DNA of 47,465 nt from a virus, in IMG/VR virus record IMGVR_UViG_3300027788_000017, positions 1 through 47,465 of that record. One strand, given 5' to 3'. Below the pieces are notes generated by a model. That model had not been told where the DNA came from. It saw only the letters and a program-made list of their open reading frames with translations, and did no database searches. Below are positions 3,114 to 30,811 of the stretch, one piece after another. Each line of letters opens with the position of its first letter. Positions within the stretch are counted from its first letter, which is position 1. A program made the position numbers and the translations under genes.

Positions 3114-3139
3114 ATCAATCTCCTTGTTATTCAGTTAGC

Positions 3140-10176: not shown

Positions 10177-11487
10177 ATGATTACAATTAAAAATGGGGAT
10201 TGCAGAGATGTCCTTAAAACTTTACCAGAAAAAAGCTTCTATACATGCGTAACATCTCCGCCTTACTTTGGTCTAAGAGACTACGGTACTGGAACTTGGG
10301 TTGGTGGAGACCCTAACTGCCCACACAAAAGAACAACTAAGATAGGCAAGACAGTGCCTACAACTACAGGACACCAAGCCATGCACGAACATGGCGATGT
10401 TGTTGGAGATGCCATATACAAAACCGAATGCCCTAAATGTGGTGCTATTCGTGTAGACAAACAGATTGGATTAGAGGAAACGCCAGAAGAGTTTGTCGAG
10501 AATATGGTTATTGTCTTCCGAGAAATATGGAGAGTGCTTAGAGATGACGGTACGCTTTGGTTAAACCTTGGCGACAGTTACTCTGGTAGCGGTAAAGGAC
10601 CATCTTCGTCTTTGAACGGAGAACATCACAACATGGAAAAGGTACACAGCAAGATAGTCCCTAATGGTTTGAAGCCAAAGGATTTGATTGGGATACCTTG
10701 GCGTGTTGCCTTGGCTTTACAGGCTGATGGTTGGTATCTACGCCAAGATATTATATGGCATAAGCCAAATCCCATGCCAGAAAGTGTGCAAGACAGATGC
10801 ACTAAGGCACATGAGTATATCTTTCTATTAACGAAAAGCCCTAAGTACCACTTTGATAACCATGCGATTAGTGAAGAAGCTAATTACCAAGGTGTTATGC
10901 GTGGTGGTTCGACAGCTAGGTATGAGCAGAATAATTTTGGAGGCGACCATAAAGAATATGACAGACGTAATAAAAGGTCTGTCTGGTCAGTTCGTCCTGC
11001 TACTTTTAAGGAGGCACATTTTGCCGTGTTCCCGCCAGAGCTTATAGAACCTTGTATAAAAGCGGGTTGTCCAGAACAAGTATGTGCAAAATGCGGTACT
11101 GCATATGAGAAACAATTTGAAATAGTAGAAGAAAACCCTGACCCGGCAGCTCAACGGCAGCCGTCACAGACGAAACATTTTGATAGCTCTATGGGTGGTG
11201 GAGGCACATCTTTCAAAGGACACAGCGGTAACTTCAAAGCTGATGGCACTCCTATGGTTAAACAAAAAAGGCTCATAGGACTACAGAAGGTGTGTAATTG
11301 TGATACAAATGATACAAATGTCGGTCAAGTCATTGACCCATTCGGAGGTTCTGGTACAACAGGGCTAGTGTCAGACCGACTTGGATTAAATGCAACGGTG
11401 GTTGAGTTGAATAAAGACTATGTTAAAATAGCTAAAGATAGATTAACTGGAGACGCACCACTGTTTTCACAAGTGGAGGTAAAATAA
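10177..11487 (+). CDS. DNA methyltransferase, beta class (N4-cytosine or N6-adenine)
   Basis: The catalytic motif IV, VTSPPYFGLRDYG, is at the N-terminus (T26-Y30) and the AdoMet-binding motif I, DPFGGSGTTG, near the C-terminus (from D387). This is the beta-class order. TSPPY is more often seen in N4-cytosine enzymes, but the base is not certain. Other landmarks are GTLWLNLGDSY, IPWRVALALQADGWYLR and DIIWHKPNPMPESV. Cysteine pairs around residues 85-90 (CPKC) and 305 (CAKC), plus CNC later, suggest structural zinc. No restriction partner is nearby, so self-protection of phage DNA is the likely role. GAGGATAATATT precedes the ATG. Confidence 0.85.
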   Translation: MITIKNGDCRDVLKTLPEKSFYTCVTSPPYFGLRDYGTGTWVGGDPNCPHKRTTKIGKTVPTTTGHQAMHEHGDVVGDAIYKTECPKCGAIRVDKQIGLEETPEEFVENMVIVFREIWRVLRDDGTLWLNLGDSYSGSGKGPSSSLNGEHHNMEKVHSKIVPNGLKPKDLIGIPWRVALALQADGWYLRQDIIWHKPNPMPESVQDRCTKAHEYIFLLTKSPKYHFDNHAISEEANYQGVMRGGSTARYEQNNFGGDHKEYDRRNKRSVWSVRPATFKEAHFAVFPPELIEPCIKAGCPEQVCAKCGTAYEKQFEIVEENPDPAAQRQPSQTKHFDSSMGGGGTSFKGHSGNFKADGTPMVKQKRLIGLQKVCNCDTNDTNVGQVIDPFGGSGTTGLVSDRLGLNATVVELNKDYVKIAKDRLTGDAPLFSQVEVK

Positions 11488-13309: not shown

Positions 13310-16300
13310 TTATCTCTTCTTAGTGTTAGCAGGTGGCATTCCGACCCAGTTAGTAGTTGATATCCAACTCGTAGACGAACCACCTCCGCCTCTTGTCTTT
13401 GCTTCTCCTGCCACATAATCAACTATGCTTTCTCTAACATCTTTAATTCCACCAAGAACAGGTGTTCTTCCTATCACTCGTCTTACTGCCTGTCGTCCTT
13501 CGCCACCTTCAAGTCCTTCTAATGCACCCGCACTAACGTCTATAGCGTCAGACAGGATACCCACAGACGGACCTCCAAGAGTTGAGAACATACGAACCTT
13601 GCCGTAAGCCCCTTGGTCTACTTGCTCTGTAGCGTTGAAGAAGAACTCTGCTATTAAGCCAAGTCCACCCATAGCCATAAGACCTTCGACCCACCAACCA
13701 AGGAATTCATTAGGTGTTGCACCCATTAACAATTCGTTAGGCGTGTTCATAGACTTACTGTCTTCTAGGTTTACACCCGCCATCTCAAATATTTTACCTA
13801 CTGGTGTCTTGTCTAAAGTTCTATCTCTCAGGGTTCTTGTTTCGTCTTCGCCTCTGGCTAGGATTAAATCTTTACCTGCATTTGCACCCATACCAAATCC
13901 CGAACCTGCCGTAAGCATAAGCATTAGTGGGGCAATGTTACCCTTTTTAGCTTCTAAGGTTACGTCTTTAGCCATTCTTCCCATCATTATTGGGAAGGAT
14001 TTAAGTTGGAATATCGTACTGCCCCAAGGTGTCTGCGCCCACATAGGCACATCGTTAGGGTCAGGCGTAAAGATAGCCTCGTTAGTAAACCTCATTATGG
14101 CATAACGAACATTGTCGTCTTGAGTATGCTTTCGTATATCATCTAGACGAGGTCCGCTTGGCTGACCGTAATCAAGCATACCGTATCGTTCTAAGAACCT
14201 TTTGCTTTTGTCAAACCTAATGCCAGAAGTAATACCTTTAGCATATAGTCGTCTCAGAGCATCTGCTTCTGCTTTGATAGCGTTGAAGCCAACCAGTGCG
14301 GCGACCTCTCTCTGCATGTTAGTCCAAGGTGTTAGACCTGTAGCATTAAAGAATGCGTGTGTGAATTTTTGTGAACCATCTCCCGCCATGTGGGTCATGT
14401 TGTCATGTATCAAGTTCTCAATACCAACACCAATATCTCTAGCGGCTTGCTTGTATGACGGGTCTTGTAGCCATCTCTGTGACCAACCTTTCATCCAAGA
14501 ACCTACACGACCACTTCTAACTAGCGGTAACACTATGTCTGGGAATGAAGTAAGGGTTGTGTAACTCAATAGAGTGACAGAGTTAAATGTTCTTAGCTTT
14601 CTACTATATGAATAGGCTCTGTCTGAACCCAATGGCTTCCTGTTAAGCACATTCATATACTCAGTCATCCAGTTTATATTGTCTCCTGTAGTTGGGACAT
14701 CGAAATCAGCTAGACCATTTACAATAGCTTTAGCTCTTAACTTGAACTGGTTGTATTGTTGCTTGTCTAATCGTGTCACATCTATAGACCCTAACAATAA
14801 GTTAAGTGCTCTTTGTTTGTTAGCATTTTTAGATGCACTGGTACTACCCATAACATTTACTATAGAGCCTACAATTTTTTCAGCTTCGTCTGGGCTGTCA
14901 ATAATTCTAGGAACTATTTCGCTGTGAATGTCTCCTGCCGCACCCATGTCTTGCATAGTTCTGGTAGTCGTCTTTGCACCAGTTAACATATTCACTGCAC
15001 CACGAGTACCGTTAGCCGCCACTTCCATGTAAGCTTCCGCCGCTTGGTTTCTTACACCAAACTCTCGTGCTAACCCTATAGTTCTAGAGCTTCTGTCAAA
15101 GTATCGTGCCAGTATTCCTTCTAAATCACGAACCATATACTCAGACATTTCTGGTATTTCGTCTGGAGTAAGCGTGATAAATCTCTGCATGAAAGGATTG
15201 CCTGATTGTGACATTCTCCTAGACAAGACATCATCAACATCAATTCGTCCGTCTGTATCAAGCATTCTCTTAATAATCTCTTGAGATATCTCCGCAGCTT
15301 CTCTTTGGTTTACATCAAATCCATTCTGTCTTTGCTCTTTCATAAAGTGCTTGGTTAACAACTCGTTAAATTTGCCGGGGTTGTCTTTGATAAAACCTAT
15401 ATCCCACACCTGTGGCACATAAAATTTCTGACCTAACTTTTTCTTCAAGTCGCCAATAGGTATTCCGTGCTCTTGCATGGAAGCAAGTTCGGCTTTGAAC
15501 CCTTCGTTGATTTGCATTGCCACCTGACGCTCTTGTGCGCTTAATCTAGACAAGTCTTGTTGACGAAGAGCAGTTATAATTCTCTCGTGACTTGCAGGTT
15601 GTGTAGAAGTACCTAGCTTTTTATTCGCAAAGTAAACTAACCCTTGGCTTTTCTTCAACCACCGCTTACCTGCCCCTTGTGCATCGGGCAACATACGCAG
15701 TGCGTTCATTAATGGTCCTACTTTCTTAGACATGTCAGCATTTATCTTTTGGAAGATACCTGCTCCGCCTTCTGGCTTAACAATGTTAGCAAACCACTTA
15801 GCACCTATTCGTCTTAGATGTACTGAGTTTTCTCTAATCCAGTTGCCACCCTTACCTTGTCCACTGTGACGTTGGATTGCCTCGAAGTCATCAACAGTTG
15901 GCTCTTCTTTTCTAAGAGAACGTCTGATAAATCCCTGAAGTGCATCAGGTACACCAAGACGTTGTGCCTCAACACCGACACCCACCATGTCACCGGGGTC
16001 TATGTTTCTGCCAAAGTCGATTTGCTCTTCCATGATTTTGCCAGACAGAGTTCCATGTTGCATAGTTCCAATCTTGTCTGCGTACATATTTGGCATGTCG
16101 CTATCAAAACCGTCTGCGTCTACATGCTTAACCTGTGTGCTGTCAAAGACAAGCATAGCATCCTGTGGAGTATTAGTTATTGGGTCAAGCTCTGTAACTC
16201 TAAAGCTATCGTAACCCATGTCTCGCATGAACGAGGTCAAAGCCATCTTAGCTTCTTCGTCTGAAGTTCCTGAACGCTTCAGGTTCTCAATGATAATTTC

Positions 16301-19300
16301 ATACAGGTCGTCTCCTGCAAATTCCCCATTGCTCCTTAGTTCTTCAATAACACTAACGCCAACCTTTTGTGGGAAGAAATTCTTGTCTCCCATCTCAGCG
16401 ATAAGCCAACTAATGTTGTTGTCCGAACCACCTATTGAGTAGAAGGTATTGGCATCGAAGTTAAAAGTGTCCTCTGCTCTTACTAATAGAGGTAATACTT
16501 TTGGTTGTTTCTTAACTCCAGAAGTACCTTCGAACAATGTCCAAAGTTTTTTCTCCTGTTGATAAAGAACTTCCAATCTCTTTTGCATCTTTAGTAGTTC
16601 AAAGGCAGGGTCTCCCGCAACTCCTTGCTCATTACCTTTGTTAATTTCTTCTGCTCGTCTGCGAGTTACATTACGATAGCTAGTTCCATCCATCTCTGTA
16701 AGAACATTAGCAATCTCTTCTCTATTTCTAGCAATACCATCAGCGTATTCATACGATAGGTTTTTCCTAGCTACAGACAAAGCTTCTCCATCAATCATTG
16801 CTCGTAACGAAGCACGATGTCCTGCGTAACTATAGTCTTCAGCTAAAGCATTTACCTTTGTAAGATATATACCTTCTCCGAAAAGAGCTTCTGTGCTTGA
16901 TGGTTCTACTTGAACATCAGCATTAGCGGCTCTTTCAAAAGCCCCTCCGTTTGGTGTCCCATGATAGTAGACGAACTCCATAAGGTTTTCGTGTTCTCTA
17001 GCACCCACAAATTCTCTAGCGGCTATGTCTCGTTCTGGAGAATAGTTGTCTATAGTTTCTCTTGCATACTTTGGTGCCGCATCATTTGTCATAGAGTACA
17101 TGCCAGTATTACGCACTGCGTTCCTGACGGGTGTCTTCAATGCAGACTTATTAGCCATCATGTCGCCACCGAAAGTTAGGTAACGATACTGTTGTCTAAG
17201 TTTTTTGTTGCCCATAATGCCGTTGACAACGTACATGACCTGTTCAATTAAGCCATCTACCATTGTCTCTAGTCTGTTCTTTAATCTTACGTTTCCAAAC
17301 ATATCCTTCTTGGCAATCCTGTTACCAAGATAGTTTGCAAATCCATCTACGAACCACTCTTCCGCAAGTCTTTCGTTTACACCCTCAACAGAAAGCTGTT
17401 CGTTCCTGTAGTTGGAGAACCTGTCAGCAATTTGTGAAGCTCGCTTGTCTCCTGCACGAAGAGATGCTTCATACATTTGATTGATTACCTGTCGTCTGTT
17501 GTCGTCAAACGAACCACGAACAAGCATGTGACCTATCTCGTGTACTGCTGTGTATTCTTGACCTTTAGTATTAGGTCGTATCCCAATAAAATCTGTTCCG
17601 CTCTTACCTTTCTTTAAAGACATACCTAATTTACGAGCAGTCTTTCTTAGCTGATTGAATTGCACACCATCTGTTGCGTGTTGGAATACACCGTAAGCAC
17701 CATCTGGAGCTTTCTCTCCAAATAGTTTCGACACATCTTCTACGCTTAAAAAGTTTGCATTACTGGTAGCATCCTGTTGAGTTTTACCCATCAGGTTCAT
17801 CATTCTATAAGTTAGAAGTCTGGCATTAGCCTCAACCTTTTTGTCTCTGTGTGTAATCTTTCTTAATAATTCTTTAACATCTGACTTAGCACCATTAGGG
17901 ATACCGTTGTCTTCTCCAGAACCTTTGGTTTGCTTTATCTCTATGTCCAGAGCACGATTTACCATGCTTGTCTTAGGCAATACATCTGGGGTCTCTTGGA
18001 ACAAACGCTTCAGACCAAGTGTAGCCAGAGCCATGTCTCTGTCATTACCCTTTATCTTTGCGTCCATTATAGCTTTGTGGAAATCAGCAGGTGTCTCAGC
18101 TAATTGTTTGCCTTCTCCTACAGTAACCCTAGCTATATCTCTTTCACTGAATTGAACACCCTCAACATTAACCTCTGGCGCTGTGTTTACTTTATTAAGA
18201 AGTCCTTGGTTAAGGTCTCTTGTTCTGGATGATTGAGACGTAGTTTGACTTAGCTCCTGAATAATTTCAGGAATAGACATCTCATTCACAGACGTAAACT
18301 GTCTGCCAGTTGGGTTGTTAAGAGCGGCTGTAGTTTTACCTTTAAGAACTTCGTCCATAAAGTTGTCTGCTTTTTTAGTAAGGTCAGCAACAATACTCTC
18401 GGCATTCTCGGACAGTTGCTTTTGCTTTTTAACAGCTTGCTTCTTAAACCTTTCGCTTACAGGGTTTTTAGTTCCTACAATTTTACCTTCTGGGCTAACT
18501 CTTAATCCTTCTCCCGCATTTGTCTTAGGGAAGTTTCTGCCTACTTGTCTACGAAGCTCTACTTGTACTTCGTTGATTAAGTTTAGAGAGCGATTAGCTA
18601 GTGTGATTATTAACTCACTGGCTTCTTCGTCCGTTCTGCTTAATGCCATGTCAGCTATAGGGTCGTTGTAACCCAAAGCATCTACATCTGGTATCCCGTC
18701 TAGGTCTCCATCTGCCGCACTTTTAGCAATAGCCGCTATCTCTGCCTGACGCATTGCTTCGTCTGGGGATGTGGTACGGTCAACAATAGTCTCCATCATT
18801 TCTGGAGTTAGTGCTGATGCTCGTGTCTCATCTGGATACATCTTATTGAATTGTTGTATCTCTCTCATGTGACGTAGAATTTTATTACGCAGGTGGAAAC
18901 TGTTCATGTATTTATAAACAGGCAATCCTTCCGCAGTCTCTCCAAGTTTAGAGCCACTGTCTAACAGACGAACCCTAGCCTTCTTTACGCCCTTGGAATT
19001 TCTGTAGGTTTTAGAACCATCAGTGCCTTTGTAAGCAATAGCTTCTTGTACGAAACTATCTCCAGAACCATAGCTTGAACCGTCTAGGGCAGACCTTATT
19101 CGTGAAGGGTCTCCGCTTTCGATAGCCTCTTCTATGTTGTTTCGGATAGTCTCCCAATGACCAAGCTTATCCATTGCGTACTTACTACGAGTACCCTTTG
19201 CATTTGCAAACTTGTCTATGCCAGACTTGAACTTGTTCTTAGTAAAGTCTCTGTCTGGTAGAATTCTTTCAAACAATGGAACTAGCTTTGGGTCAACAAA

Positions 19301-22300
19301 GTTCTTCTCTGGTAAGAAAAACCTTTCCATTACACTCATAACTTTCTGTGCAACCCTTGTCCAAAGAGACATAAGCTCTTGTGGAGTTCCCGCTTTACCA
19401 CGAGATATAGCAAACTGTGAGAACTGTTGAGCAAAGAATTCAGCAGGACTATGTAGTTCATTGTTAGCTGTGCCCGGCAATCTTTCTTTTAGCTTGCCTA
19501 GCTCTACACCATCGTCTGTGATGTAGTCTCCCATTCTTTCCCAGAACCTACTCTTCTCCTGTGGAGTTAGTATGTTTGCATAAGCCCAGTGTCCAACTTC
19601 GTGAATAACTTTTTGGAAGTCTGGGGTATTCATGCTTCCGTCTGCGGCTGACCCTACGCCTATCGTATTGGCAACATTGCTGTCTGCCGAACCGGGGAGG
19701 AACGTATAGCCTGTAGGGTCATCTCTGAACCGAGGCATACTACTATCTGCACCCGATATATTCCTTAACACAGACATAACTGCGTTCAATTCGCCAACTG
19801 GTCGCTCACGCATTATCAATGAAATCTGTTGCATTGAAGCATGACGACTTGCGTTGTTATACTTTACTCCATGTGGTGCATGGTAATGGATGATGTCGTT
19901 CAACACCTCCATATATTTAATGTACCCCATGTAATCATTTTTGGTTTTAAAGTGTGGGGAATTCCAAGCCATGTTCTCGAAGTTCTGTAGTTCTTCAACC
20001 ACCTCTCCAACATACTTGAACACACCCCTAAGAGGTTTAGAACCAAACATCTCTGGTATTTGAGATTGGTCTATCTCCATAGACTTTATTCTATCAAAGC
20101 TTATAGGCTGTGTTAGAGGGTCTTCAATATCTGGGTCATCAATTAATCTGTTTTGTTTGCCTGTTGATGTAGGCTTAACACTGTTAGGAGCAGGGCTGAA
20201 TTCAGCACCATCTATAGCAACAAAAGAAGCATCTCTTGCCTTACCTTTTAGCGATGGGTCTGTGTGACCGACTGTAAAGCTTTCGTTTACTTGCTTGCCA
20301 AGGACGGATGAGATGGAGTTATTGTCTGCGTATTGTTTCAGAGAAGCGTGACGAACACGACCTTCAAATTGACCTGACTTTAGACCTATAGACAAAGACC
20401 TTCCTTGTGGAATGTCATCTGCAAACTCTTGCATTGTTCTCTGTACGGATGGGTTGAGTATCTCTTCCCCTTCGTCAACTACATCTAATGGCGTATCATC
20501 TGGTTCTTCCACATGATTTCTATAGGTGTTTGTTTCCTTGTGATTAGGGTTATGAAAAGACTTCCCACTACCTTCTGGTGCTAGGTCAGATGCCTTTAAT
20601 GCTCCGTCTTCTAGAGCCAGTTTTATTCTCTTGTCGAATACCTTTAAGAACTCTCTCTTGATTTCGTATTCATTATCAAGGACTACAATCTGGTCTATGT
20701 CGTCTGTGTGTATTTCAAAGTCATCTCCTTCTTTGACCACACGACCAACAACCTTGCCCATGAATTTAATTTTTCGTGTGCCTTCTGGCTTGCCCACCAT
20801 AGTAAAGTGGTTGTTTAAATCTACCTCAACACCCTTATGCTCTATAACCATAGGCTTTGCTTTGCCCTTTGGTTTAGTGGTAGGTGCTTCTTTGCTCATC
20901 GTAGCCATACGATTTTCGATATCGGTTATCTCTCTAATAAGAAGAGATGTATCCTTATGGCTTTCGAACCTAGCTGTGGCATCTTTAATCAAATCATTTT
21001 TAAGACCATCCAAAGCCTCTGAATGTGTCTGCTTGTCTGCGACTGCACGACCAACGGCTTTATCTTCAGGAGTTACTTTCGTATCAAAAGTAGTCTCTAA
21101 ATCTTTCATAGCTGTTTGCTTGTCTGGAACAATACCTTCGTCTGCTCCACGCTCAAGATTAGCTATGCCTTTCTTAACCCACTTTCTGTTTGACCACGCT
21201 TGGGGGTCAAGCTCTCTCAATTCTTTCTTTAGCTTCTTAGCTGTACGTCTGTGACTTTGTGCCATGCTCTTAGAGAAGGCAGTACCTTTTGCTTCTTCTA
21301 ACCTAGCGTCATCTGATGCTCGTTTAATCTCGTTTACTAACTTAGCCGCCTTGTATTCTGGGGAAGCTTTGTTTGCTATAGCATCGCCCTTAACCTCTAC
21401 TTCTGTAGATTTGATTAGTCTCTGCACAGCATTGTTGATGTCCATAATCAAAGCTTGTGGACTATCCACTGCCTCTGATGGCATGGGTGCATCTTGTCTA
21501 GTCAAGAAGAAACGGTTGCTTACTGGGTCAACAAATACTTGGTCGCCACCTTCGTAGTCTTGAGTTCCTCCAGTTTTTTCTCTCAAGTCACCGGGGCTAA
21601 CCTCTACCTTTTGATAGACGACACCATCAATTTTTTCATAGTCTCTCTTGTTGGAGTATATGTCTTTAGCTTTTTTATCTATTTCGCCCTTACTTCTTGG
21701 ACCTATAATATCTGTTCTATCAATGGTCTTCTTAGATGGGATACGACTAAGCATGTCGCCCCTTGAATTAAGAGCAAGCTTGTAAGCAAAGAAACGCTTA
21801 CGACCTTCTTTTATTCCTAAGTATTGTTTTGGAAACCTTTGTTCCACACTTAGAGGAGAGCCAAGGATTATCTGTTGTAGTGTGACTTGACTGTCTATTT
21901 CTCTGATGTTTGGAATAAGACCTTCGCTAGATAAAGCCTGTCTTATTTCAGATATGTCTGCATCTTCGTCTGCTTTCTTTAGCTTTCGAATGTCTCTAAG
22001 AATACGCCTCAGTTCTAATACTGCCTCTGCATTCTCTCCAGTTGTCTCTGTTACTTTCTTACCTGTTACAGGGTCAGTTACTTTTGTCTGTTTGAATTTT
22101 ACAGGGTCAGACACCATGACTTTATGAGACGCACCCAATAAAGATGCTTCGTCCATAGCTGTGTAAGCCGCCATTTCTCCTGTTAGCTTCTCTCCGTTAC
22201 GCTTTAGCGTATCGACTAATCGACCTGTGAACCCATGCTTGTTGGAAGACTTCGGTCCTGTTAGAGAACCTTGTGTGCCTCCAAGCTTGTTCATGCTGTA

Positions 22301-25219
22301 GGTTATGCCATTGATTACCTGTGTGCCTTGTACAACCTTGCTACCCTCATGTGGTGCAATAGTTACATCGCCATCTGAGTGTGCTCTGAAGACCTTATCT
22401 CCGTCCGCTCTCCTTGCTCTAATCTTTTGAATAGTTTGATTGGCAAACATCTGTATGAAGGCATCGTTATAGCCTAGCTCTTTCTTCTCTTCTTTAAGCT
22501 TTGCTATAGTCTTGTTTAATGCTTCACGCTCTAGTGGAGAGAAGTCTGCAATACTGTCAGCTTCTACTTTCTTAGAGCCAGACCTTTGTACTGTCTCAAT
22601 ACCTCTCATCTTATTGTTAAGTATGTCTAGAGTTCTAGAGCCGAAGTTCTCTTCAACTTGATTAAGAACCTCAGACAAAGAGAAGTCATCGCCCAATCCA
22701 TCTACTAATTCTGTGAATAAATTGACCGCATTTTGGTCTAGGTACTTGTTGTATTCACGAAGAGACGCTTCCATAGCAAGAGAAGCCGCTTCGTCTGTGG
22801 GGAATTCATCCGCAGCCTTAGATATATTAACTCTAAGTAGTGCCTCAATTAAGTCATAGCTAAACACTCTATGTCCAAATGGCATTAGTGCTGTTGCTTC
22901 TCCACCATCAAACACTTGGTTGAACGCTTCTCCAACCCTAGCCTTTGCTTGGTACTCGTCTACTTTCTTTCTCAAGAACTTAACACGAGCAGAGTTCTTC
23001 TGTGCTGTGCCTTTCAATCCTTTTGTAACTTGTCTTAGCTCAACTCTAATAGATGCTTCTGTAAGAGACGGGTCTATCGCTTGTAGGAAATTGACTGTAT
23101 TAGCTTCCGAACCTGCATTGGCAATAATACCATCATCAATATCAGGAAGTGCATCATCTGTATTAACCTCATTTGCTGTGGCTGTTTCTTCTGCGATTGT
23201 GTCAGCTTCTTTTGAAGTCTCTTCTACCCGATTAGCCTTTGAAACCTTCTGGTCAAATTCATCTTGAGCCGCATCCGCATCAGTTTTAGCCTGTTTCTTG
23301 TCTGCCAACATAGTTTTTCTGTCGGCTTGGAGTGTGGATAATTCTGTTAGTTCTTCTTGAGTGGCTGTGCCTCTCTTGTTTTTCTTACGAATACTGTTGA
23401 TACGCTTCTCGTTGACTTTAAGGTTGTCAGTAATCTCGCCTTCTAATCTACGATTGTCTGTAATCCTGCCGTTTAACTCTACATCTGCTTCAGGTGCAAT
23501 CCTTGGTCCTTCAGGAACAGCGGTTACGCCCTGACCATCAGCAAGTTCTACAAACTCTTTTCGACTTTCGTCTGTAAGCGCTTCTCGTTTTTCAGGACCA
23601 TCCAAGGCTTCCGTCTGGTCGCCTTCTAGTTGGGTACGGTTTCCTTCAGCCGCTCGTTGAGCAGAAGGTCCGTCTGTAGATGTTCCCCCTTCTCCACTAT
23701 AAAAATCTGGTCCAGTTTCAGTACCATCTGGAGTGTTGCCTGTTGGGTTTCCATCTGCGTCAAACTCATTAGCCGCACGATTGAACACAGACACAGCAGT
23801 GTTAATCTCTGCGGGGTCGCCACCTTTTAATGCTTCTAGGTATCGTCTGTAACCTGCTTCTGTAAGGTCAGCCTGTCGTCTTAGGTTAGTTATTTTAGTT
23901 TGATTTCCTAAAGGGTTTTCTGGGTCAACCTTTTGCCCCATACCTGCTTCGAGTTCATCAGCCTGTCGTCTTAAACCTACGATTAAGTCTGGTGCATTAC
24001 GCATTGCAGACAGAGTTGTTAATGCCTCTTGCTTCTGCAAGATGTCTGTAGCTATATCTTGTGTTATCTTTCCTTCAGTTACTCCATTAGCGAGTATCTG
24101 CTCTAAGGTTGGAACACTTGTCTCAACAGTTTGCCCATCAACAGTTGTAGTTCGCCCACCTACAGAGGTGTTGCTAAGTACATCTGGGTCAATGTTTGCT
24201 TGGTCTATAGAGTTTTCTAGGTCTGCTTTTAATTCTTTTTCTCGGTTTGAAAATAATACATCCCTTTCTTCTACGGGTGTGTCCAAATCAGCTAGTCGGC
24301 TTAACTCTTCTTGTTCTGCCTGTCGATTAAGAGCTAGTCCTTCTGCTTGACCATCACGCCAAGCCGCTGTCATCTTACCTATTTTACCTTTTTTAAGGTT
24401 AGTCCACTTAGGTAATGGCGTTACAGCACCGGCTACACCAAATGCACCACCAAGAAGAGCACCTGCTCCCGCACCTAAAGCTATGTCTCCCGCAAACTTA
24501 GAGCCTGAGTATCCACCTTCTTGTAAGCCAATATTGATATCTCTTGTCTGTGTGCCTCCAGACGCAATGCCTTCAATGATACCACCTGCTAGTCCTTCAG
24601 ATACAGCACCTCTCTTTGCACCACCCCATGCTCCCGCAACCAATGCGTTCCTACCCGCTTGTGCGGCTGTTCGAGCGGCGACCTTTGCACCTGCACCACC
24701 GAAGCCGAAGCCAAGTAAGTTAACAGGGTCAAGTAATAGGTTTCCTGCATTCTGGAAAAAGCCAGATGCACCAGTACCACCATCTTCATAGAAGTTTGGT
24801 AGTGCTTCATAAACTGTTTGTAGTCTTGCTAGACGAGCGTTCTGTGTATTGTCATTTGACATACTCTCAGAAGCTTCTCCGAGGATACCTATAGTATTTA
24901 GGTTACTCCAAGAGCGGTCTGCGTAAAATTCTTCTATGGCATCTTCTGGATTACTAAAGGTTCGACCTTCTTTTTCGTAGTAGTAATCATATATGTCTTG
25001 GACAAATCGTGTGTCTGCCAACATTGCAGTGGCATCAGACTTAGAAAGCCCTGCCGCATATCCTAATACACCTGCATCTTTATTAGAGCCAGACGCAACC
25101 GAACCAGTGTTTTGTTCTATGTCGTCAAAGACCGTGTAACCGGGCTCTGCTCTCGTTTCTTCTCCGTTAGGAGTTACAACACCGTAACCACCAACTTCTC
25201 CAAATCCTTTATCTGCCAT
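13310..25219 (-). CDS. Giant polyvalent ejection protein with two zincin motifs and an ADP-ribosyltransferase-like domain (3969 aa)
   Basis: One uninterrupted frame spans a quarter of the window. Residues about 155-270 are a Gly/Ala-rich, membrane-active stretch (LLLDPVNLLGFGFGGAGAKV, then GDIALGAGAGALLGGAFGVA). Two HExxH metallopeptidase motifs follow: VIHEVGHWAYANIL (H1873-H1877, with a later SPAEFFAQQF Glu) and AVHEIGHMLVRG (H2560-H2564, later AEEWFVDGFANY). Then comes an ADP-ribosyltransferase-like domain: YYHGTPN (H2753), GEGIYLT (Y2785) and MLVFDSTQVKHV, the pattern of ARTs in 'polyvalent' phage proteins. The ~700-residue C-terminus is helical and partly hydrophobic. Its place after 310- and 859-aa proteins mirrors T7 gp14-gp15-gp16, so it is probably packaged and ejected. 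I see no lytic-transglycosylase motif and no convincing RNA-polymerase motif. Confidence 0.85.
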   Translation of the reverse strand: MADKGFGEVGGYGVVTPNGEETRAEPGYTVFDDIEQNTGSVASGSNKDAGVLGYAAGLSKSDATAMLADTRFVQDIYDYYYEKEGRTFSNPEDAIEEFYADRSWSNLNTIGILGEASESMSNDNTQNARLARLQTVYEALPNFYEDGGTGASGFFQNAGNLLLDPVNLLGFGFGGAGAKVAARTAAQAGRNALVAGAWGGAKRGAVSEGLAGGIIEGIASGGTQTRDINIGLQEGGYSGSKFAGDIALGAGAGALLGGAFGVAGAVTPLPKWTNLKKGKIGKMTAAWRDGQAEGLALNRQAEQEELSRLADLDTPVEERDVLFSNREKELKADLENSIDQANIDPDVLSNTSVGGRTTTVDGQTVETSVPTLEQILANGVTEGKITQDIATDILQKQEALTTLSAMRNAPDLIVGLRRQADELEAGMGQKVDPENPLGNQTKITNLRRQADLTEAGYRRYLEALKGGDPAEINTAVSVFNRAANEFDADGNPTGNTPDGTETGPDFYSGEGGTSTDGPSAQRAAEGNRTQLEGDQTEALDGPEKREALTDESRKEFVELADGQGVTAVPEGPRIAPEADVELNGRITDNRRLEGEITDNLKVNEKRINSIRKKNKRGTATQEELTELSTLQADRKTMLADKKQAKTDADAAQDEFDQKVSKANRVEETSKEADTIAEETATANEVNTDDALPDIDDGIIANAGSEANTVNFLQAIDPSLTEASIRVELRQVTKGLKGTAQKNSARVKFLRKKVDEYQAKARVGEAFNQVFDGGEATALMPFGHRVFSYDLIEALLRVNISKAADEFPTDEAASLAMEASLREYNKYLDQNAVNLFTELVDGLGDDFSLSEVLNQVEENFGSRTLDILNNKMRGIETVQRSGSKKVEADSIADFSPLEREALNKTIAKLKEEKKELGYNDAFIQMFANQTIQKIRARRADGDKVFRAHSDGDVTIAPHEGSKVVQGTQVINGITYSMNKLGGTQGSLTGPKSSNKHGFTGRLVDTLKRNGEKLTGEMAAYTAMDEASLLGASHKVMVSDPVKFKQTKVTDPVTGKKVTETTGENAEAVLELRRILRDIRKLKKADEDADISEIRQALSSEGLIPNIREIDSQVTLQQIILGSPLSVEQRFPKQYLGIKEGRKRFFAYKLALNSRGDMLSRIPSKKTIDRTDIIGPRSKGEIDKKAKDIYSNKRDYEKIDGVVYQKVEVSPGDLREKTGGTQDYEGGDQVFVDPVSNRFFLTRQDAPMPSEAVDSPQALIMDINNAVQRLIKSTEVEVKGDAIANKASPEYKAAKLVNEIKRASDDARLEEAKGTAFSKSMAQSHRRTAKKLKKELRELDPQAWSNRKWVKKGIANLERGADEGIVPDKQTAMKDLETTFDTKVTPEDKAVGRAVADKQTHSEALDGLKNDLIKDATARFESHKDTSLLIREITDIENRMATMSKEAPTTKPKGKAKPMVIEHKGVEVDLNNHFTMVGKPEGTRKIKFMGKVVGRVVKEGDDFEIHTDDIDQIVVLDNEYEIKREFLKVFDKRIKLALEDGALKASDLAPEGSGKSFHNPNHKETNTYRNHVEEPDDTPLDVVDEGEEILNPSVQRTMQEFADDIPQGRSLSIGLKSGQFEGRVRHASLKQYADNNSISSVLGKQVNESFTVGHTDPSLKGKARDASFVAIDGAEFSPAPNSVKPTSTGKQNRLIDDPDIEDPLTQPISFDRIKSMEIDQSQIPEMFGSKPLRGVFKYVGEVVEELQNFENMAWNSPHFKTKNDYMGYIKYMEVLNDIIHYHAPHGVKYNNASRHASMQQISLIMRERPVGELNAVMSVLRNISGADSSMPRFRDDPTGYTFLPGSADSNVANTIGVGSAADGSMNTPDFQKVIHEVGHWAYANILTPQEKSRFWERMGDYITDDGVELGKLKERLPGTANNELHSPAEFFAQQFSQFAISRGKAGTPQELMSLWTRVAQKVMSVMERFFLPEKNFVDPKLVPLFERILPDRDFTKNKFKSGIDKFANAKGTRSKYAMDKLGHWETIRNNIEEAIESGDPSRIRSALDGSSYGSGDSFVQEAIAYKGTDGSKTYRNSKGVKKARVRLLDSGSKLGETAEGLPVYKYMNSFHLRNKILRHMREIQQFNKMYPDETRASALTPEMMETIVDRTTSPDEAMRQAEIAAIAKSAADGDLDGIPDVDALGYNDPIADMALSRTDEEASELIITLANRSLNLINEVQVELRRQVGRNFPKTNAGEGLRVSPEGKIVGTKNPVSERFKKQAVKKQKQLSENAESIVADLTKKADNFMDEVLKGKTTAALNNPTGRQFTSVNEMSIPEIIQELSQTTSQSSRTRDLNQGLLNKVNTAPEVNVEGVQFSERDIARVTVGEGKQLAETPADFHKAIMDAKIKGNDRDMALATLGLKRLFQETPDVLPKTSMVNRALDIEIKQTKGSGEDNGIPNGAKSDVKELLRKITHRDKKVEANARLLTYRMMNLMGKTQQDATSNANFLSVEDVSKLFGEKAPDGAYGVFQHATDGVQFNQLRKTARKLGMSLKKGKSGTDFIGIRPNTKGQEYTAVHEIGHMLVRGSFDDNRRQVINQMYEASLRAGDKRASQIADRFSNYRNEQLSVEGVNERLAEEWFVDGFANYLGNRIAKKDMFGNVRLKNRLETMVDGLIEQVMYVVNGIMGNKKLRQQYRYLTFGGDMMANKSALKTPVRNAVRNTGMYSMTNDAAPKYARETIDNYSPERDIAAREFVGAREHENLMEFVYYHGTPNGGAFERAANADVQVEPSSTEALFGEGIYLTKVNALAEDYSYAGHRASLRAMIDGEALSVARKNLSYEYADGIARNREEIANVLTEMDGTSYRNVTRRRAEEINKGNEQGVAGDPAFELLKMQKRLEVLYQQEKKLWTLFEGTSGVKKQPKVLPLLVRAEDTFNFDANTFYSIGGSDNNISWLIAEMGDKNFFPQKVGVSVIEELRSNGEFAGDDLYEIIIENLKRSGTSDEEAKMALTSFMRDMGYDSFRVTELDPITNTPQDAMLVFDSTQVKHVDADGFDSDMPNMYADKIGTMQHGTLSGKIMEEQIDFGRNIDPGDMVGVGVEAQRLGVPDALQGFIRRSLRKEEPTVDDFEAIQRHSGQGKGGNWIRENSVHLRRIGAKWFANIVKPEGGAGIFQKINADMSKKVGPLMNALRMLPDAQGAGKRWLKKSQGLVYFANKKLGTSTQPASHERIITALRQQDLSRLSAQERQVAMQINEGFKAELASMQEHGIPIGDLKKKLGQKFYVPQVWDIGFIKDNPGKFNELLTKHFMKEQRQNGFDVNQREAAEISQEIIKRMLDTDGRIDVDDVLSRRMSQSGNPFMQRFITLTPDEIPEMSEYMVRDLEGILARYFDRSSRTIGLAREFGVRNQAAEAYMEVAANGTRGAVNMLTGAKTTTRTMQDMGAAGDIHSEIVPRIIDSPDEAEKIVGSIVNVMGSTSASKNANKQRALNLLLGSIDVTRLDKQQYNQFKLRAKAIVNGLADFDVPTTGDNINWMTEYMNVLNRKPLGSDRAYSYSRKLRTFNSVTLLSYTTLTSFPDIVLPLVRSGRVGSWMKGWSQRWLQDPSYKQAARDIGVGIENLIHDNMTHMAGDGSQKFTHAFFNATGLTPWTNMQREVAALVGFNAIKAEADALRRLYAKGITSGIRFDKSKRFLERYGMLDYGQPSGPRLDDIRKHTQDDNVRYAIMRFTNEAIFTPDPNDVPMWAQTPWGSTIFQLKSFPIMMGRMAKDVTLEAKKGNIAPLMLMLTAGSGFGMGANAGKDLILARGEDETRTLRDRTLDKTPVGKIFEMAGVNLEDSKSMNTPNELLMGATPNEFLGWWVEGLMAMGGLGLIAEFFFNATEQVDQGAYGKVRMFSTLGGPSVGILSDAIDVSAGALEGLEGGEGRQAVRRVIGRTPVLGGIKDVRESIVDYVAGEAKTRGGGGSSTSWISTTNWVGMPPANTKKR

Positions 25220-25286: not shown

Positions 25287-27866
25287 CTACTGAGTTTGCT
25301 GATTAATAAGGCTTAGTCCCCAAGCCAATACTGAATTTGCGAAGACATCTTCTCCCGGAAAGATAGTTCCCAATGGGGCATCGTAAGGTTTATTATCATA
25401 CTTATTAAATACGTCTACGTTAGCCGCCATCCTGTAATTTCGTATCATCTTAGAAATATTATGGTCTTTGTCTGACCTAATAGAACCATTTTTATCGTAT
25501 TCATATCCAAGCAACAAAGCGTTTCTTATGTATTTCTTAGCTCTCTGGTTGTTAAAGTTTGGATTGTCCAACTTTCTTTGTGCCAGTTTAGTAGCAAAGG
25601 CTTTGAACTCTGCATTGTTTATTAAAGCAGAACTCAACTGACCCTTGATACCTTGTTGGTTCGTCTGTTGATTAACTAGAACCGCAGGTAACGTAAGCTT
25701 ATATTTATTGTCTGCATTCAATGTAGCAAATCCCGCAGCCCTAAACATTTCAGCACCTTCATCAAACCTAATAAAACCACTCTTGCCCAAAGACATTGAA
25801 CGCTTGTAGATAGCACTGTTAGCCATATTGCTGTTAGCTACTGTCATGCCTGAACTTATGTTTGTGTCAAACAATATTGCACGAAGCGGTGCAACAACTG
25901 CTTCGTTCTCTTCTCTCCACGCATTTTCAGTCATGCCAACTCCCGGTAATATTAAACCGTTGCCAGTGTTGGTCTCTTCGCCTTGTGGTTTCGTTGCCCT
26001 TATCTGGTCTACATCAGCATCATATTCTTCTTTCAAATCTTTTAATAGTTTCTGACCGATTGCTTTTGCACCGTTAGCCCCTTTCCAAGAAGTGCCTTCT
26101 TGCGCATGCCACATTACATCGTTTCTAGATACCATGAATGTTTTTTCTATTCTTTCTTTTATAGCTTCGTAGGTTACTTTCAAACCTTCAAGCTTGTTGT
26201 CCATGTAGTTGGTGTCTAGCCAGAAGCCGAGACCTTCGTTATATGTGCTTTTACTTAACTTCTCCATGTCCTCTACAATTTGAGACGAGGTATCGGACAG
26301 TTTATCTATAGCCGCATCCGCACTAAGGTCGAGCTTACTTCCGTTCTTAACATAGAAAGCAGGAGAGTATTTTGATGCAATCTTACTTTCTGCTGTAGCC
26401 CAAGTTGTAACACCCTTGCCTCTAAACTTTTGGTAAATCATACCAACCGTGGCATTGATGTCGAAATTTTCTCCGCTATTTTCCAGTACGGTTTCTATTT
26501 CAGTAAGTATCTCTGCACGAATAGTTGAGTTAGGCGGAACGAAATAGGCAGTAAAGAACTGTGTTGCCGCAAGTGCCGCAGGACTATTTTCATACCAAGT
26601 CCTTGCTCCATTAGTTTGGTCTTTTTGTGCTTCTACTCTTACCGCAATCATGGACTGTGTCTGTGACTGTGCGTTTGCCCTAACTGTAGCTATTACTTCT
26701 TTTGCTTTTGCTTCCGCTTTAGCTCGAACTGCCCCTTGAGTAGCGACTATGTTCTGCTTCTTCATAGTTGTCAGCCAACCAACACCTAATATTGCTCCAA
26801 CTTTCTTCTCGAATTCTGCTTGAGGTAACATGTCGTAGCCTGTTATTTCTCCCGCAGCGTTTTTCACAGGGGTGGCAAAATAGTTATTGCCAAGACCTGC
26901 TGATGCCGCAACACGGTTGACTACATTCATAAAGTTTTCGTTAGTAAAGCTGTCTGTGTTCGTAATAGTGTTGTCTATGAAAGCCTTAATGTCAGGGTTG
27001 TTGTAGAAGTCAGTACGGAATTTATCTTGGTTTGCATCTAGTTGTACATTTAGAGCTTTGTCTCTTTGTACCTTTAGTAAAGGAAGCAACCTGTTTACCT
27101 CATCATCCGTAAGGTCTCGTTTAAGGTTTGTTAGACCCATTGTTTTTATGAAAGCTTTAAGGTCATCATCGGTGTATTGGTCTAAGTTCTCTAGCTTAGA
27201 GCTTAGTATTTTTGTAGATATTTCTTTAATAGCCTGTTCTTCGGCAACCAAACCCTGTCCCTGAAAAATTTCCTTTAGACCGTCTCTCTTCCACTTAGGC
27301 ATTCCGTCATAGAATTTATCTATGTCGTCTGCCGTGTTAATTCTTTTCCATAGGTTTCCCGCTACTTCATCTTCTAAGTCTGCATCACGAAGCGTTGAAC
27401 GATGTTCGTTCCAAGCTTGGGAGTTAATCCCTGTTGACTGCAACAAAGAAGCCGCACCATCAGGACCAAGTCTTTCCTCAAGCATTTTAGTGTAGTCGCC
27501 AAAGGAGGATTGCTCAGTATTGACCATACTGAAAGCACTCTCTTTTTGCTTTGAAGTTTGAGCCAAAGTTTCTGTCATTTCAGCAACTTTAATCTGGGCG
27601 ACCTTGCTGTTGTGACGGGCTGATATTGCTTCGTCTGTCTTGGTATAGCCCAAGTCAGCACTGTCAAAAGGATTTCCCCCAGTTAGGGTTCGTCTTTCTT
27701 CAGCCAACATCTTTGGGGATACTGTACGACCTTCTTTCAAAGCTTGGTCTTTAAACTTTTGATACTGCTCTCTGTTATTTAATCGTTTTTGATTGAGCTT
27801 CTCTTTCTCGTTCTCAAACTGAGTAGAGAAAGTAGTGTCGCCCATACTAAATAATTGACCTGCCAT
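25287..27866 (-). CDS. Large helical internal virion (ejection) protein, gp15-like (859 aa)
   Basis: The product starts MAGQLFSMGDTTFSTQFENE and is almost entirely helical and charged. A long Ala/Lys/Glu/Arg helix lies in the middle (GAVRAKAEAKAKEVIATVRA) and no enzymatic motif is visible. It lies between the 310-aa protein and the 3969-aa protein. Size, helical composition and order match T7 gp15, which forms the periplasmic tube of the ejectosome, though no sequence identity is claimed. It starts 3 nt after the 310-aa stop. A 67-bp gap separates it from the giant gene, with no clear terminator. Confidence 0.7.
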   Translation of the reverse strand: MAGQLFSMGDTTFSTQFENEKEKLNQKRLNNREQYQKFKDQALKEGRTVSPKMLAEERRTLTGGNPFDSADLGYTKTDEAISARHNSKVAQIKVAEMTETLAQTSKQKESAFSMVNTEQSSFGDYTKMLEERLGPDGAASLLQSTGINSQAWNEHRSTLRDADLEDEVAGNLWKRINTADDIDKFYDGMPKWKRDGLKEIFQGQGLVAEEQAIKEISTKILSSKLENLDQYTDDDLKAFIKTMGLTNLKRDLTDDEVNRLLPLLKVQRDKALNVQLDANQDKFRTDFYNNPDIKAFIDNTITNTDSFTNENFMNVVNRVAASAGLGNNYFATPVKNAAGEITGYDMLPQAEFEKKVGAILGVGWLTTMKKQNIVATQGAVRAKAEAKAKEVIATVRANAQSQTQSMIAVRVEAQKDQTNGARTWYENSPAALAATQFFTAYFVPPNSTIRAEILTEIETVLENSGENFDINATVGMIYQKFRGKGVTTWATAESKIASKYSPAFYVKNGSKLDLSADAAIDKLSDTSSQIVEDMEKLSKSTYNEGLGFWLDTNYMDNKLEGLKVTYEAIKERIEKTFMVSRNDVMWHAQEGTSWKGANGAKAIGQKLLKDLKEEYDADVDQIRATKPQGEETNTGNGLILPGVGMTENAWREENEAVVAPLRAILFDTNISSGMTVANSNMANSAIYKRSMSLGKSGFIRFDEGAEMFRAAGFATLNADNKYKLTLPAVLVNQQTNQQGIKGQLSSALINNAEFKAFATKLAQRKLDNPNFNNQRAKKYIRNALLLGYEYDKNGSIRSDKDHNISKMIRNYRMAANVDVFNKYDNKPYDAPLGTIFPGEDVFANSVLAWGLSLINQQTQ

Positions 27867-27869
27867 TTT

Positions 27870-28802
27870 TTAAATCCCCACTTTTCCATCAGGGTAGTAT
27901 ATCTCGCCATACATACCTGTTCTTGGTTGGTTCGATACTGTTGAATTACCTGCACTTCCCGTAACAGTTCCCTTAACAGGTGGAGTGTAAATCCCTAAAG
28001 ATTGTCCTAAAGATTGTCCCGCAGACAATTCGTTACCATCAGTTTTTGTGGTAAGCATCTTCTGCATACTTGCTAAAGCCTTTGCTATATCGCCATCAGC
28101 ACCTTGAGCACCTGCCGAAGCGGCTTTGTACAAGTCGCCATATGGGTTGGTTGGCATTGATACGTTAGGTTCGTAAAGTTTGAATGTCCTATCAAATTCA
28201 TTCTGTATAGGTGTTCCATAGAAGTCGTTAAAGTTTCCACGAGCGGTTGTGTCTAATGCCATTCTGCTCTTAGCTGAAGCTATAGTATCTGCTTCTGCAT
28301 CAAACATGGCTTTGTTTAGCTGTGGTGCGTACTTGTCTACAATGCCTCTATTGATGTCTTGTCTAGCTACGCCACTATCTCCACCGCCTAGCCTTGATAT
28401 AAGGTTAGCCTCTGTCTTGCTCTGGTCTAGAGTTGCTAGTTTTAATACATTGTCTGTGTAAAGTTGGCTTCGAGCCATAGTATCATTTACTAGGTCAGTT
28501 TGAGTTGGTGTATATGGAAGACCTAAGTATTGTGATACTTGGTCGTTAGCGGCTTTCAGGTCAGCGGATTGCTGAAGTAATTTGTTTCTTAATGAGATGC
28601 GGTCTGCATTTTTTTGATATGCTAAATTAGTTTGAGCATTAGCATTTTCAAGCATGGCGTTCTGGAATTGAACTCCGCTTGCTCTGTTCATATCTTTGGC
28701 GTTCTGACCTGCCACTAAGTCCATACCCGCACCGGCAATACCTGCCCACGGACCTGCACCCATTTCCATGCCAACACTTCCTAAAAAACTGCCCCAACCC
28801 AT
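27870..28802 (-). CDS. Internal virion protein, gp14-like (310 aa)
   Basis: The N-terminus MGWGSFLGSVGMEMGAGPWA is Gly-rich and hydrophobic (continuing GIAGAGMDLVAGQ), typical of small ejection proteins that insert in the outer membrane. A coiled-coil-like middle follows (ISLRNKLLQQSADLKAANDQ) and then a Ser/Gly-rich tail. It is first of the presumed ejection trio (310, 859, 3969 aa), the order of T7 gp14, gp15 and gp16. The assignment rests on order and composition, not on a specific motif. Confidence 0.6.
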   Translation of the reverse strand: MGWGSFLGSVGMEMGAGPWAGIAGAGMDLVAGQNAKDMNRASGVQFQNAMLENANAQTNLAYQKNADRISLRNKLLQQSADLKAANDQVSQYLGLPYTPTQTDLVNDTMARSQLYTDNVLKLATLDQSKTEANLISRLGGGDSGVARQDINRGIVDKYAPQLNKAMFDAEADTIASAKSRMALDTTARGNFNDFYGTPIQNEFDRTFKLYEPNVSMPTNPYGDLYKAASAGAQGADGDIAKALASMQKMLTTKTDGNELSAGQSLGQSLGIYTPPVKGTVTGSAGNSTVSNQPRTGMYGEIYYPDGKVGI

Positions 28803-29605: not shown

Positions 29606-30370
29606 TTAGTAAAAGCCTTTGCCAAAACCTTTGGCTTGACCGTTGAAATTAATTCCCATGCCGTTATTTCCTGTACCGGCAATGGTACTGTTACTTAACG
29701 TACCACCTTTGTTACCTGAATTCGTCCCTACTCCGCCACTTATAGACGAGCCAAATGTCCCAGTATTGGACTTTTCGTCTTTACCCATGCCAAATGTGTC
29801 GGAAATATTGTCCATTTGGGTGTTAACTGTGGACCCGATGTTGTTCATTGTACCACTAACGGTATTAGAATTCTGTGGAGTGTCACTATATTTACCGCTA
29901 CCTGCCGCCCCCAACATAGACATACCAATGCTCTTTCCAACACTGCTCATATTGGGTGCAATCATACCTGTAATAGTTTCTGGCATAGATTGACCTAATG
30001 GATTGTCTGGGGCTACTTGCCCTATAACTCCTCTAGCCGCATTCAATCCCATAACACCAACAGGACCGCCTAAAGCAAAAGCTCCTACATTTGCCGCAAT
30101 GCCCGGTGCGGCTTTTACTGCACCACTGACTAAGCTTGATATAGCATTACCTATAGACGAAAAGAAACCGGGGTCGTCTTGGCTGTTACCTTGGTCATCT
30201 AACTTGCTTTCGTCTAAAGACTTAGTGACTGTTGGCGAGACAACCTGTGTCGGACCTTGAAATGCAGGCGCTAACGTCTCAACGGTAACAGCACCCTTTT
30301 GATAGTTGGTGTTGTCATATTCTTTTTCTGGAGCACTATCTCCGCTACTATCTCCGCCACCAAATCCCAT
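29606..30370 (-). CDS. Gly/Ser/Asn-rich virion-associated protein (254 aa)
   Basis: The product starts MGFGGGDSSGDSAPEKEYDN. A hydrophobic Gly/Ala stretch near residues 80-130 (GAVKAAPGIAANVGAFALGG then PVGVMGLNAARGVIG) could insert in a membrane. The tail is a Gly/Asn/Ser-rich low-complexity region (FGSSISGGVGTNSGNKGG). The pattern resembles the 401-aa neighbour. An internal or ejected virion protein is plausible. Its ATG shares one base with the stop of the GNAT gene (TAATG). Confidence 0.6.
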   Translation of the reverse strand: MGFGGGDSSGDSAPEKEYDNTNYQKGAVTVETLAPAFQGPTQVVSPTVTKSLDESKLDDQGNSQDDPGFFSSIGNAISSLVSGAVKAAPGIAANVGAFALGGPVGVMGLNAARGVIGQVAPDNPLGQSMPETITGMIAPNMSSVGKSIGMSMLGAAGSGKYSDTPQNSNTVSGTMNNIGSTVNTQMDNISDTFGMGKDEKSNTGTFGSSISGGVGTNSGNKGGTLSNSTIAGTGNNGMGINFNGQAKGFGKGFY

Positions 30371-30810
30371 TACAACCTCTTACTGTAGACAGTACCTACA
30401 ATCTCGTAGCCAAGACGGGACATAAAAGACGTATGCCTTGGTGTGTGAGAATGTGTAATACCGTAGTTCACTTCTATTGCCCCTTGTTCTTTGCACCAAA
30501 TTTCAAAATCCTTGGACAAGCGGATGCCAACCATAGGATTTTTTCCATCAGTGTAGAGAGTTTCTTGCTGACCCAAGACTTCGTAGTTAAAAAAATAGTT
30601 TTGAACATAGCCCAAAAAGAAAGCAACAGGCTTCCCATCTTTTTCATAAACTCTGAAATAGGTGTGGCTTTTCTTACTATAGTTTCTAGAATACTGACGA
30701 ACTTTTTCTTCATTAAAAGGCATACTTGAGTAGACAGGACTTGTCCTGTGCATTTCTTTAGCCAATGGTAAAAGTATTTCAATATCTTCATAGGTCGCAT
30801 CCCTTATCAT
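30370..30810 (-). CDS. GNAT-family N-acetyltransferase
   Basis: The product from ATG 30810 begins MIRDATYEDIEILLPLAKEM, the classic GNAT N-terminus. It continues with a bulge strand PVAFFLGYVQNYFF, an acceptor-site helix (VGIRLSKDFEIWCKEQGAIE) and the closing strand FMSRLGYEIVGTVYSKRL. The longer frame from 30900 overlaps the upstream gene and is rejected; the chosen start is one base after the 401-aa stop. The enzyme would move an acetyl group from acetyl-CoA to an unknown amine. The usual acetyl-CoA P-loop (Q/R-x-x-G-x-G/A) is not obvious. Confidence 0.75.
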   Translation of the reverse strand: MIRDATYEDIEILLPLAKEMHRTSPVYSSMPFNEEKVRQYSRNYSKKSHTYFRVYEKDGKPVAFFLGYVQNYFFNYEVLGQQETLYTDGKNPMVGIRLSKDFEIWCKEQGAIEVNYGITHSHTPRHTSFMSRLGYEIVGTVYSKRL

Positions 30811-30811
30811 T

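What the first reader, a model, noticed from the sequence alone, without database searches (positions are those of the whole stretch)
13310..25219. 3969-residue ejection protein carrying two metallopeptidase motifs and an ADP-ribosyltransferase-like domain
Seen: one uninterrupted frame with a Gly/Ala membrane-active N-terminus, HEVGH (1873-1877), HEIGH (2560-2564), YYHGT (H2753) ... GEGIYLT (Y2785) ... LVFDSTQVKHV. Known: polyvalent proteins of phages and plasmids string together enzymes that are delivered with the DNA, and T7 gp16 is the largest ejection protein, placed after gp14 and gp15. Inference: this phage fuses the gp16 role with a polyvalent effector string, so two peptidases and an ART may enter the host at the first moment of infection. 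Much of the protein has no motif I can read, so more domains may be hidden.
Basis: partly seen in the sequence, partly recalled or inferred. Interest (0 to 1): 0.85.

Follow-up and report, generated by a model that had tools for sequence, protein, structure and literature searches.

The report
Giant phage ejection protein carrying enzymes
A marine bacterial virus encodes a 3,969-residue protein whose C-terminal part resembles the proteins that short-tailed viruses push into the host ahead of their DNA, and which carries one clear and one probable metal-dependent protease and a domain that probably attaches ADP-ribose to targets, so the DNA-entry machine may also deliver host-modifying enzymes.

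Summary
In detail: one uninterrupted minus-strand frame (13310-25219, 3,969 aa) with every motif at the stated residue. It belongs to a conserved family of about 3,000-4,060-aa proteins in marine phages related to Roseobacter phage CRP-810, with constant order N-module / variable middle / zincin 1 / zincin 2 / ART / C-module. Zincin 1 is predicted with a lethal-factor/PPEP-type zincin fold (Z 7.4). The ART domain is predicted with an ART fold; its best match is a chain of the solved cyanophage A4 pre-ejectosome (Z 9.6), then PARPs/tankyrases (Z about 6). The C-module matches solved ejectosome proteins (PhiM1, Foldseek E 2.5e-4; T7 gp16, Z 7.5). The N-module is shared with pelagiphage proteins annotated 'internal virion protein D'. 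Zincin 2 keeps its motif and a remote profile match to zincin 1, but no beta-sheet is predicted. The upstream genes (310 and 859 aa) mirror T7 14-15-16 order. Across 54 relatives zincin 1's HExxH was lost once, zincin 2's at least seven times, never both. Packaging, delivery and catalysis remain inferred.

The parts
13310..25219 (-). giant ejection (internal virion) protein, 3,969 aa
   Evidence: family
24425..25030 (-). N-module (res. 64-265), shared with pelagiphage 'internal virion protein D' of 1,230-1,390 aa; holds hydrophobic segment 246-264
19970..24367 (-). variable middle (res. 285-1750); length between modules 770-1,630 aa in the family; no fold recognised
19118..19948 (-). zincin 1 (res. 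1758-2034); HEVGH at 19589-19603, downstream conserved E1927 in SPxEFFA
17156..17947 (-). zincin-like 2 (res. 2425-2688); HEIGH at 17528-17542, downstream LAEEWF (E2620/E2621)
   Evidence: beta-sheet not predicted
16100..17077 (-). ART domain (res. 2715-3040), H2753, Y2785, candidate third residue D3004 (or D3020)
13388..15886 (-). C-module (res. 3112-3944), gp16-like ejectosome fold; hydrophobic segment 3839-3857
25287..27866 (-). 859-aa neighbour in the position of T7 gene 15; similar-sized ORF directly upstream in nearly all relatives
   Evidence: no sequence match
27870..28802 (-). 310-aa Gly-rich protein in the position of T7 gene 14
   Evidence: no sequence match

Best explanation
It is the largest ejection protein of a short-tailed marine phage of the CRP-810 type. 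SHOWN by computation: a conserved family architecture in which a C-terminal module with the fold of ejectosome proteins (T7 gp16, PhiM1) and an N-module shared with other annotated internal virion proteins flank a variable stretch, a lethal-factor-like zincin, a second zincin-like domain and an ART-PolyVal-type ADP-ribosyltransferase domain; hydrophobic segments lie only in the end modules. INFERRED: it sits in the capsid above the portal, leaves through the tail before or with the DNA, and its two ends engage the inner membrane as T7 gp16's two hydrophobic regions do. The stretch between them, which is everything that looks enzymatic, would then face the cytoplasm. There at least one zincin cuts the chain or a host protein, most simply releasing the ART from the membrane-bound hub, and the ART modifies a host macromolecule at the first moment of infection.
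For: C-module: Foldseek best PDB hit is the PhiM1 ejectosome, 8vb2_A, E 2.5e-4, probability 1.0; VIA Z 7.8, 280 residues, and T7 gp16 (9jyy_I) Z 7.5, 272 residues (chain identity checked); viral models named internal virion protein D and 'large polyvalent protein associated'; the CRP-810 C-terminal ORF hits phrog_684 'virion structural protein', 5e-25, and the TL-2011b homologue hits phrog_342 'internal virion protein with endolysin domain'. ART: 9k3a_B, cyanophage A4 pre-ejectosome, Z 9.6, 174 residues (identified as A-4L gp27, which has LYHGT and GSGTY); family members hit Pfam ART-PolyVal at 9.4e-8 and 3.3e-7. Zincin 1: lethal factor Z 7.4, 148 residues, and PPEP-1 Z 5.9. Conservation: H1873 53/57, E1874 49/57, H1877 49/57, E1927 51/57; H2753 56/68, Y2785 62/68, D3004 64/68. 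Hydrophobic peaks in 35 full-length members: N-module 28, C-module 32, between them 0; T7 gp16 has its peaks in two zones likewise. 54 of 54 relatives keep at least one HExxH zincin. T7-like gene order.
Against: No virion proteomics and no assay. Z values of 7-10 are middling for large helical models. Sequence similarity of the C-module to T7 gp16 is marginal. Zincin 2 has no predicted beta-sheet. The third ART residue is not settled, and several lineages have lost ART catalytic residues. Zincin 1 was lost only once on the tree, so 'never both lost' is weak statistically (Fisher p 0.028 without correction for relatedness; one independent pair). The protein is three times T7 gp16's size, and how it would pass the tail is unknown.
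Confidence: 0.68

Rival explanations
1. The zincins act before packaging: the chain is cut during virion assembly (as proposed for P1 DdrB), so only some fragments are ejected.
For: Iyer et al. (PMC5512222) report that P1 DdrB is processed before packaging and predict its MPTase does it; a 3,969-aa chain is easier to handle in pieces.
Against: The same paper contrasts DdrB with N4 vRNAP, which also holds an MPTase; no data for this family.
Confidence: 0.25
2. The zincins are effectors that cut host proteins, and the chain stays whole.
For: The closest folds, lethal factor and PPEP-1, are peptidases that cut other proteins (their function from general knowledge); the two domains have diverged and are lost separately.
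Against: A fold says nothing about the substrate; processing of polyvalent chains is the main proposal in the literature.
Confidence: 0.3
3. The ART and zincin 2 folds are structural parts of the ejectosome rather than enzymes.
For: The A4 pre-ejectosome contains a resolved ART-like domain; several family members lack ART or zincin 2 catalytic residues while keeping the region.
Against: H, Y and D are kept in 56, 62 and 64 of 68; a purely structural role would not be expected to hold these residues.
Confidence: 0.15
4. It is a tail or host-recognition protein rather than an ejection protein.
For: The cyanophage A4 protein with the ART-like domain was annotated 'tail protein'; giant phage proteins are often tail proteins.
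Against: Ejectosome folds, gene position, and a separate tail fibre gene at 32027-33883.
Confidence: 0.05

Closest known systems
Roseobacter phage CRP-810 gp36/gp35/gp34 (OR671924, PMC11288001)
   Same: Same modules in the same order: HELAH, HEIGH, FYHGTPNG, GPGIY, C-module; 25-37% identity by module; MCP, stabilisation and fibre genes also match.
   Different: Deposited as three overlapping ORFs in three frames; the paper's text names only 'internal virion protein D' and does not mention an ART or a peptidase.
Coliphage N4 virion RNA polymerase and relatives (Schitoviridae)
   Same: About 3,500-aa largest ejection protein, analogous to T7 gp16, with an HExxH zincin domain (PMC12633501); the relative in Roseovarius Plymouth podovirus 1 also has an ART (PMC5512222).
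   Different: No RNA polymerase was recognised here; two zincins; the C-module has a gp16/PhiM1-like fold, whereas the N4 authors found no structural homologue for their C2 domain.
Phage T7 gp16 / PhiM1 tetrameric ejection protein
   Same: C-module fold, gene order, two zones of hydrophobic segments.
   Different: 1,318 aa in T7; gp16-like proteins were listed as 609-1,337 aa (PMC8954989); T7 gp16 and PhiM1 TEP have peptidoglycan-cutting domains, none found here.
Cyanophage A4 (A-4L) gp27, PDB 9k3a_B
   Same: ART-like domain in a protein of a solved pre-ejectosome.
   Different: 1,717 aa; no HExxH; no detectable N- or C-module similarity in sequence.
Polyvalent proteins (Iyer et al. 2017)
   Same: Zincin MPTase and H-Y-D ART domains strung in one large phage protein.
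   Different: That paper does not use the terms 'internal virion', 'eject' or 'gp16'; here the string is built into a gp16-like ejection protein.

Membership tests
gp16-like ejection proteins | gp16/TEP fold | tested here: met
   8vb2_A E 2.5e-4, probability 1.0; 9jyy_I Z 7.5 over 272 residues; moderate scores
gp16-like ejection proteins | last of three adjacent ejection genes (14-15-16 order) | tested here: met
   310 and 859 aa upstream; same pattern in relatives; the neighbours' own identity not shown
gp16-like ejection proteins | hydrophobic regions near both ends | tested here: met
   28/35 and 32/35 members, none between
gp16-like ejection proteins | present in the virion and ejected | not testable with these tools
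   needs virion proteomics or cryo-EM
gp16-like ejection proteins | N-terminal transglycosylase (T7 type; not universal) | tested here: inconclusive
   No Pfam match in 27 members; absent from P22 and Sf6 too
Zincin metallopeptidase, domain 1 | HExxH and downstream Glu in a zincin fold | tested here: met
Zincin metallopeptidase, domain 2 | HExxH and downstream Glu in a zincin fold | tested here: inconclusive
   Motif and Glu present; hhalign to zincin 1 probability 88; no beta-sheet predicted
ART-PolyVal (Tox-ART-HYD2) | ART fold | tested here: met
   9k3a_B Z 9.6; tankyrase/PARP Z 5.5-6.2
ART-PolyVal (Tox-ART-HYD2) | H in strand 1, Y in strand 2, D in strand 5 | tested here: inconclusive
   H2753 and Y2785 lie in predicted strands and are conserved; third residue D3004 or D3020
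ART-PolyVal (Tox-ART-HYD2) | Pfam gathering score | tested here: not met
   Window protein 17 bits against 31.2; relatives reach 9.4e-8. So called ART-PolyVal-like, by fold and motifs, not a Pfam-grade member
N4-type virion RNA polymerase | RNA polymerase domain | tested here: not met
   No RNAP family matched in the members scanned; one CRP-810 N-terminal hit to phrog_2206 (5.8e-5) is an end-module match only

The most novel reading that the evidence does not exclude
A whole family of T7-type DNA ejectosomes works as a protein-delivery system: its gp16-like subunit carries an ART and self-cutting zincins between its two membrane-engaging ends, so that cargo is threaded into the cytoplasm and cut free, without any RNA polymerase.
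Probability: 0.3. Interest if true: 0.78.

Novelty: new variant of a known kind. Interest (0 to 1): 0.6.

Why it matters
Polyvalent proteins were predicted to be injected, and the largest ejection proteins of T7-like phages were seen mainly as DNA conduits. This family joins the two in one chain and in dozens of phages, one of them cultured (CRP-810). That makes it testable whether a podovirus ejectosome delivers enzymes, which host target an early ART hits, and whether zincins cut the chain before or after entry. It also suggests that ejection proteins annotated only as 'hypothetical' or 'internal virion protein D' may hide effectors.

Tried and rejected
Pfam and PHROGs on the window protein alone: only sub-threshold ART-PolyVal and PARP, no PHROG. 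Sequence search of the PDB with the protein and with profiles: nothing relevant. Foldseek of the zincin model against the PDB gave no significant hit; the VIA realignment of its candidates did. A C-module in the short pelagiphage proteins: not detected by hhalign, so I do not claim that the giant is a simple cargo insertion into them. N-module against T7 gp16: no match. Bacterial genomes: no relative, so no sign of a prophage form. Hidden domains in the middle 285-1750: none recognised; E3_binding and Sigma70_r4 matches in a few relatives were not traced (a motif search found no such stretch). A mutual-rescue signal between the zincins: zincin 1 was lost once only, so not provable on this tree. 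Papers that join 'polyvalent protein' and 'internal virion protein': none in the held library.

Full report
Observation. The open frame is real and lies on the minus strand, 25219 down to 13310, ATG start, 3,969 aa. All listed motifs are at the stated residues. Two HExxH in one protein of this composition occur in 1 of 5,000 shuffles. A second public contig carries the identical 3,969-aa protein.

Setting. The window is a 47,465-base virus record with no tRNA. On the minus strand come terminase, portal, major capsid and tail genes. Capsid (60%), stabilisation (49%) and tail fibre (39-44%) proteins match Roseobacter phage CRP-810 in the same order. The genes before the giant code for 310 and 859 aa, and in nearly all relatives with enough flank a 615-1,008-aa ORF lies directly upstream. 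T7 has 196, 747 and 1,318 aa in genes 14, 15 and 16. Neither upstream protein has a recognisable relative by sequence, so this is an argument from position and size.

Family. Scans of viral contigs with zincin 2/ART, C-module and N-module alignments returned 42, 80 and 80 loci, the last two capped. After building profiles, 54 complete ORFs, redundant ones included, have the order N, zincin 1, zincin 2, ART, C; 35 are non-redundant complete members of 3,043-4,060 aa. The distance between N-module and zincin 1 varies from 773 to 1,633 residues. CRP-810 has the same string, deposited as three overlapping ORFs in three frames. No relative was found in bacterial genomes.

Ends. The C-module matches by sequence the TL-2011b internal virion protein and a 2,051-aa phiA008 protein, which has one HELGH and no detected ART. 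By fold it matches the PhiM1 ejectosome (Foldseek E 2.5e-4, probability 1.0; Z 7.8) and T7 gp16 (Z 7.5 over 272 residues; chain identity). The N-module matches the first part of pelagiphage 'internal virion protein D' (hhalign E 2e-68 over 210 columns) but not T7 gp16. Those shorter proteins (1,230-1,390 aa) have no detectable zincin, ART or C-module. Hydrophobic segments occur in the N-module in 28 of 35 members, in the C-module in 32, and in none in between; T7 gp16 has its strongest peaks at 330-394 and 1136-1251. In T7 the part between the two membrane regions is thought to reach the cytoplasm (PMC8954989). By analogy the enzymes would face the cytoplasm; this is inference.

Zincin 1. The model shows three strands, the HExxH helix and a later helix with E1927, confidence about 90 around the site. 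The best structural matches are lethal factor (Z 7.4, 148 residues) and PPEP-1 (Z 5.9), over about 57-254 of the model, that is 1791-1988. Iyer et al. joined the N4 vRNAP zincin to the same superfamily (PMC5512222).

Zincin 2. VHEIGH and a later conserved AEEWF are present; hhalign joins zincins 1 and 2 (probability 88). The model gives helices but no sheet, so the fold is not confirmed. Of 54 relatives judged, 24 keep both HExxH, 24 only the first and 6 only the second (two members cut off at a contig end were removed, and phiA008, whose HELGH lies at 1079, was counted as having the first). On the C-module tree the first changed once and the second at least seven times. No member lacks both. 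This agrees with a need for one active zincin but is not proof.

ART. The model has H2753 and Y2785 in strands and D3004 next to one. The best match is chain B of the cyanophage A4 pre-ejectosome (Z 9.6, 174 residues), clearly above tankyrase and PARP (Z 5.5-6.2). That chain is A-4L gp27, with LYHGT and GSGTY inside the matched range. So an ART-like domain has been seen in a solved ejectosome; I could not find the A4 paper in the held library. Family members hit ART-PolyVal at 9.4e-8 and 3.3e-7; the window protein itself stays below the Pfam threshold. The third catalytic residue is D3004 (64 of 68) or D3020 (acidic in 42 of 68).

How it most likely works. Shown by computation: ejectosome-type C-module, shared N-module, zincin 1 fold, ART fold, family-wide order. 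Inferred: packaging above the portal, ejection, membrane insertion by the ends, cytoplasmic position of the enzymes, cutting by a zincin, ADP-ribosylation of a host target. T4 Alt is the known precedent for an injected ART (PMC5512222, PMC9503650). N4 vRNAP is the known precedent for a giant ejection protein with a zincin (PMC12633501).

Novelty. Giant ejection proteins with zincins, polyvalent zincin-ART strings and an ART-like domain in an ejectosome are each known. The combination of a gp16-like module, two zincins and an ART without RNA polymerase, conserved across a marine phage group, was not found described: the CRP-810 paper does not mention it and no held paper joins 'polyvalent protein' with 'internal virion protein'. 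New variant of a known kind.

Noticed in passing
L004:13917-23557 (Roseobacter phage CRP-810 gp36/gp35/gp34): The CRP-810 giant is deposited as three overlapping ORFs in three frames; a near-perfect duplication of about 30 bases lies at the second junction (about L004:21010-21060). Close relatives have one frame, so this may be a sequence error or a real break.
   Followed up: partly
L008:3021-9173 (Aeromonas phage phiA008): A 2,051-aa protein annotated 'hypothetical' with one HELGH zincin and the C-module but no detected ART: a simpler architecture of the same kind.
   Followed up: partly
middle region of a few relatives in alignments A7 and A9: Pfam E3_binding (best 3e-10) in three relatives and Sigma70_r4_2 in one; positions not traced. 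The variable middle may hold small binding domains.
   Followed up: partly
30370-30900 (minus): Relative of the CRP-810 GNAT acetyltransferase (30% identity) among the tail genes; Iyer et al. mention GNATs beside ARTs in polyvalent proteins.
   Followed up: no
39708-42404 (minus): 898-aa protein with RCC1-like and tail-fibre matches between portal and capsid genes.
   Followed up: no
10177-11487 (plus): DNA methyltransferase whose matches to several families are strongest at the two ends (1-33 and 382-425), suggesting an insertion in the middle.
   Followed up: no
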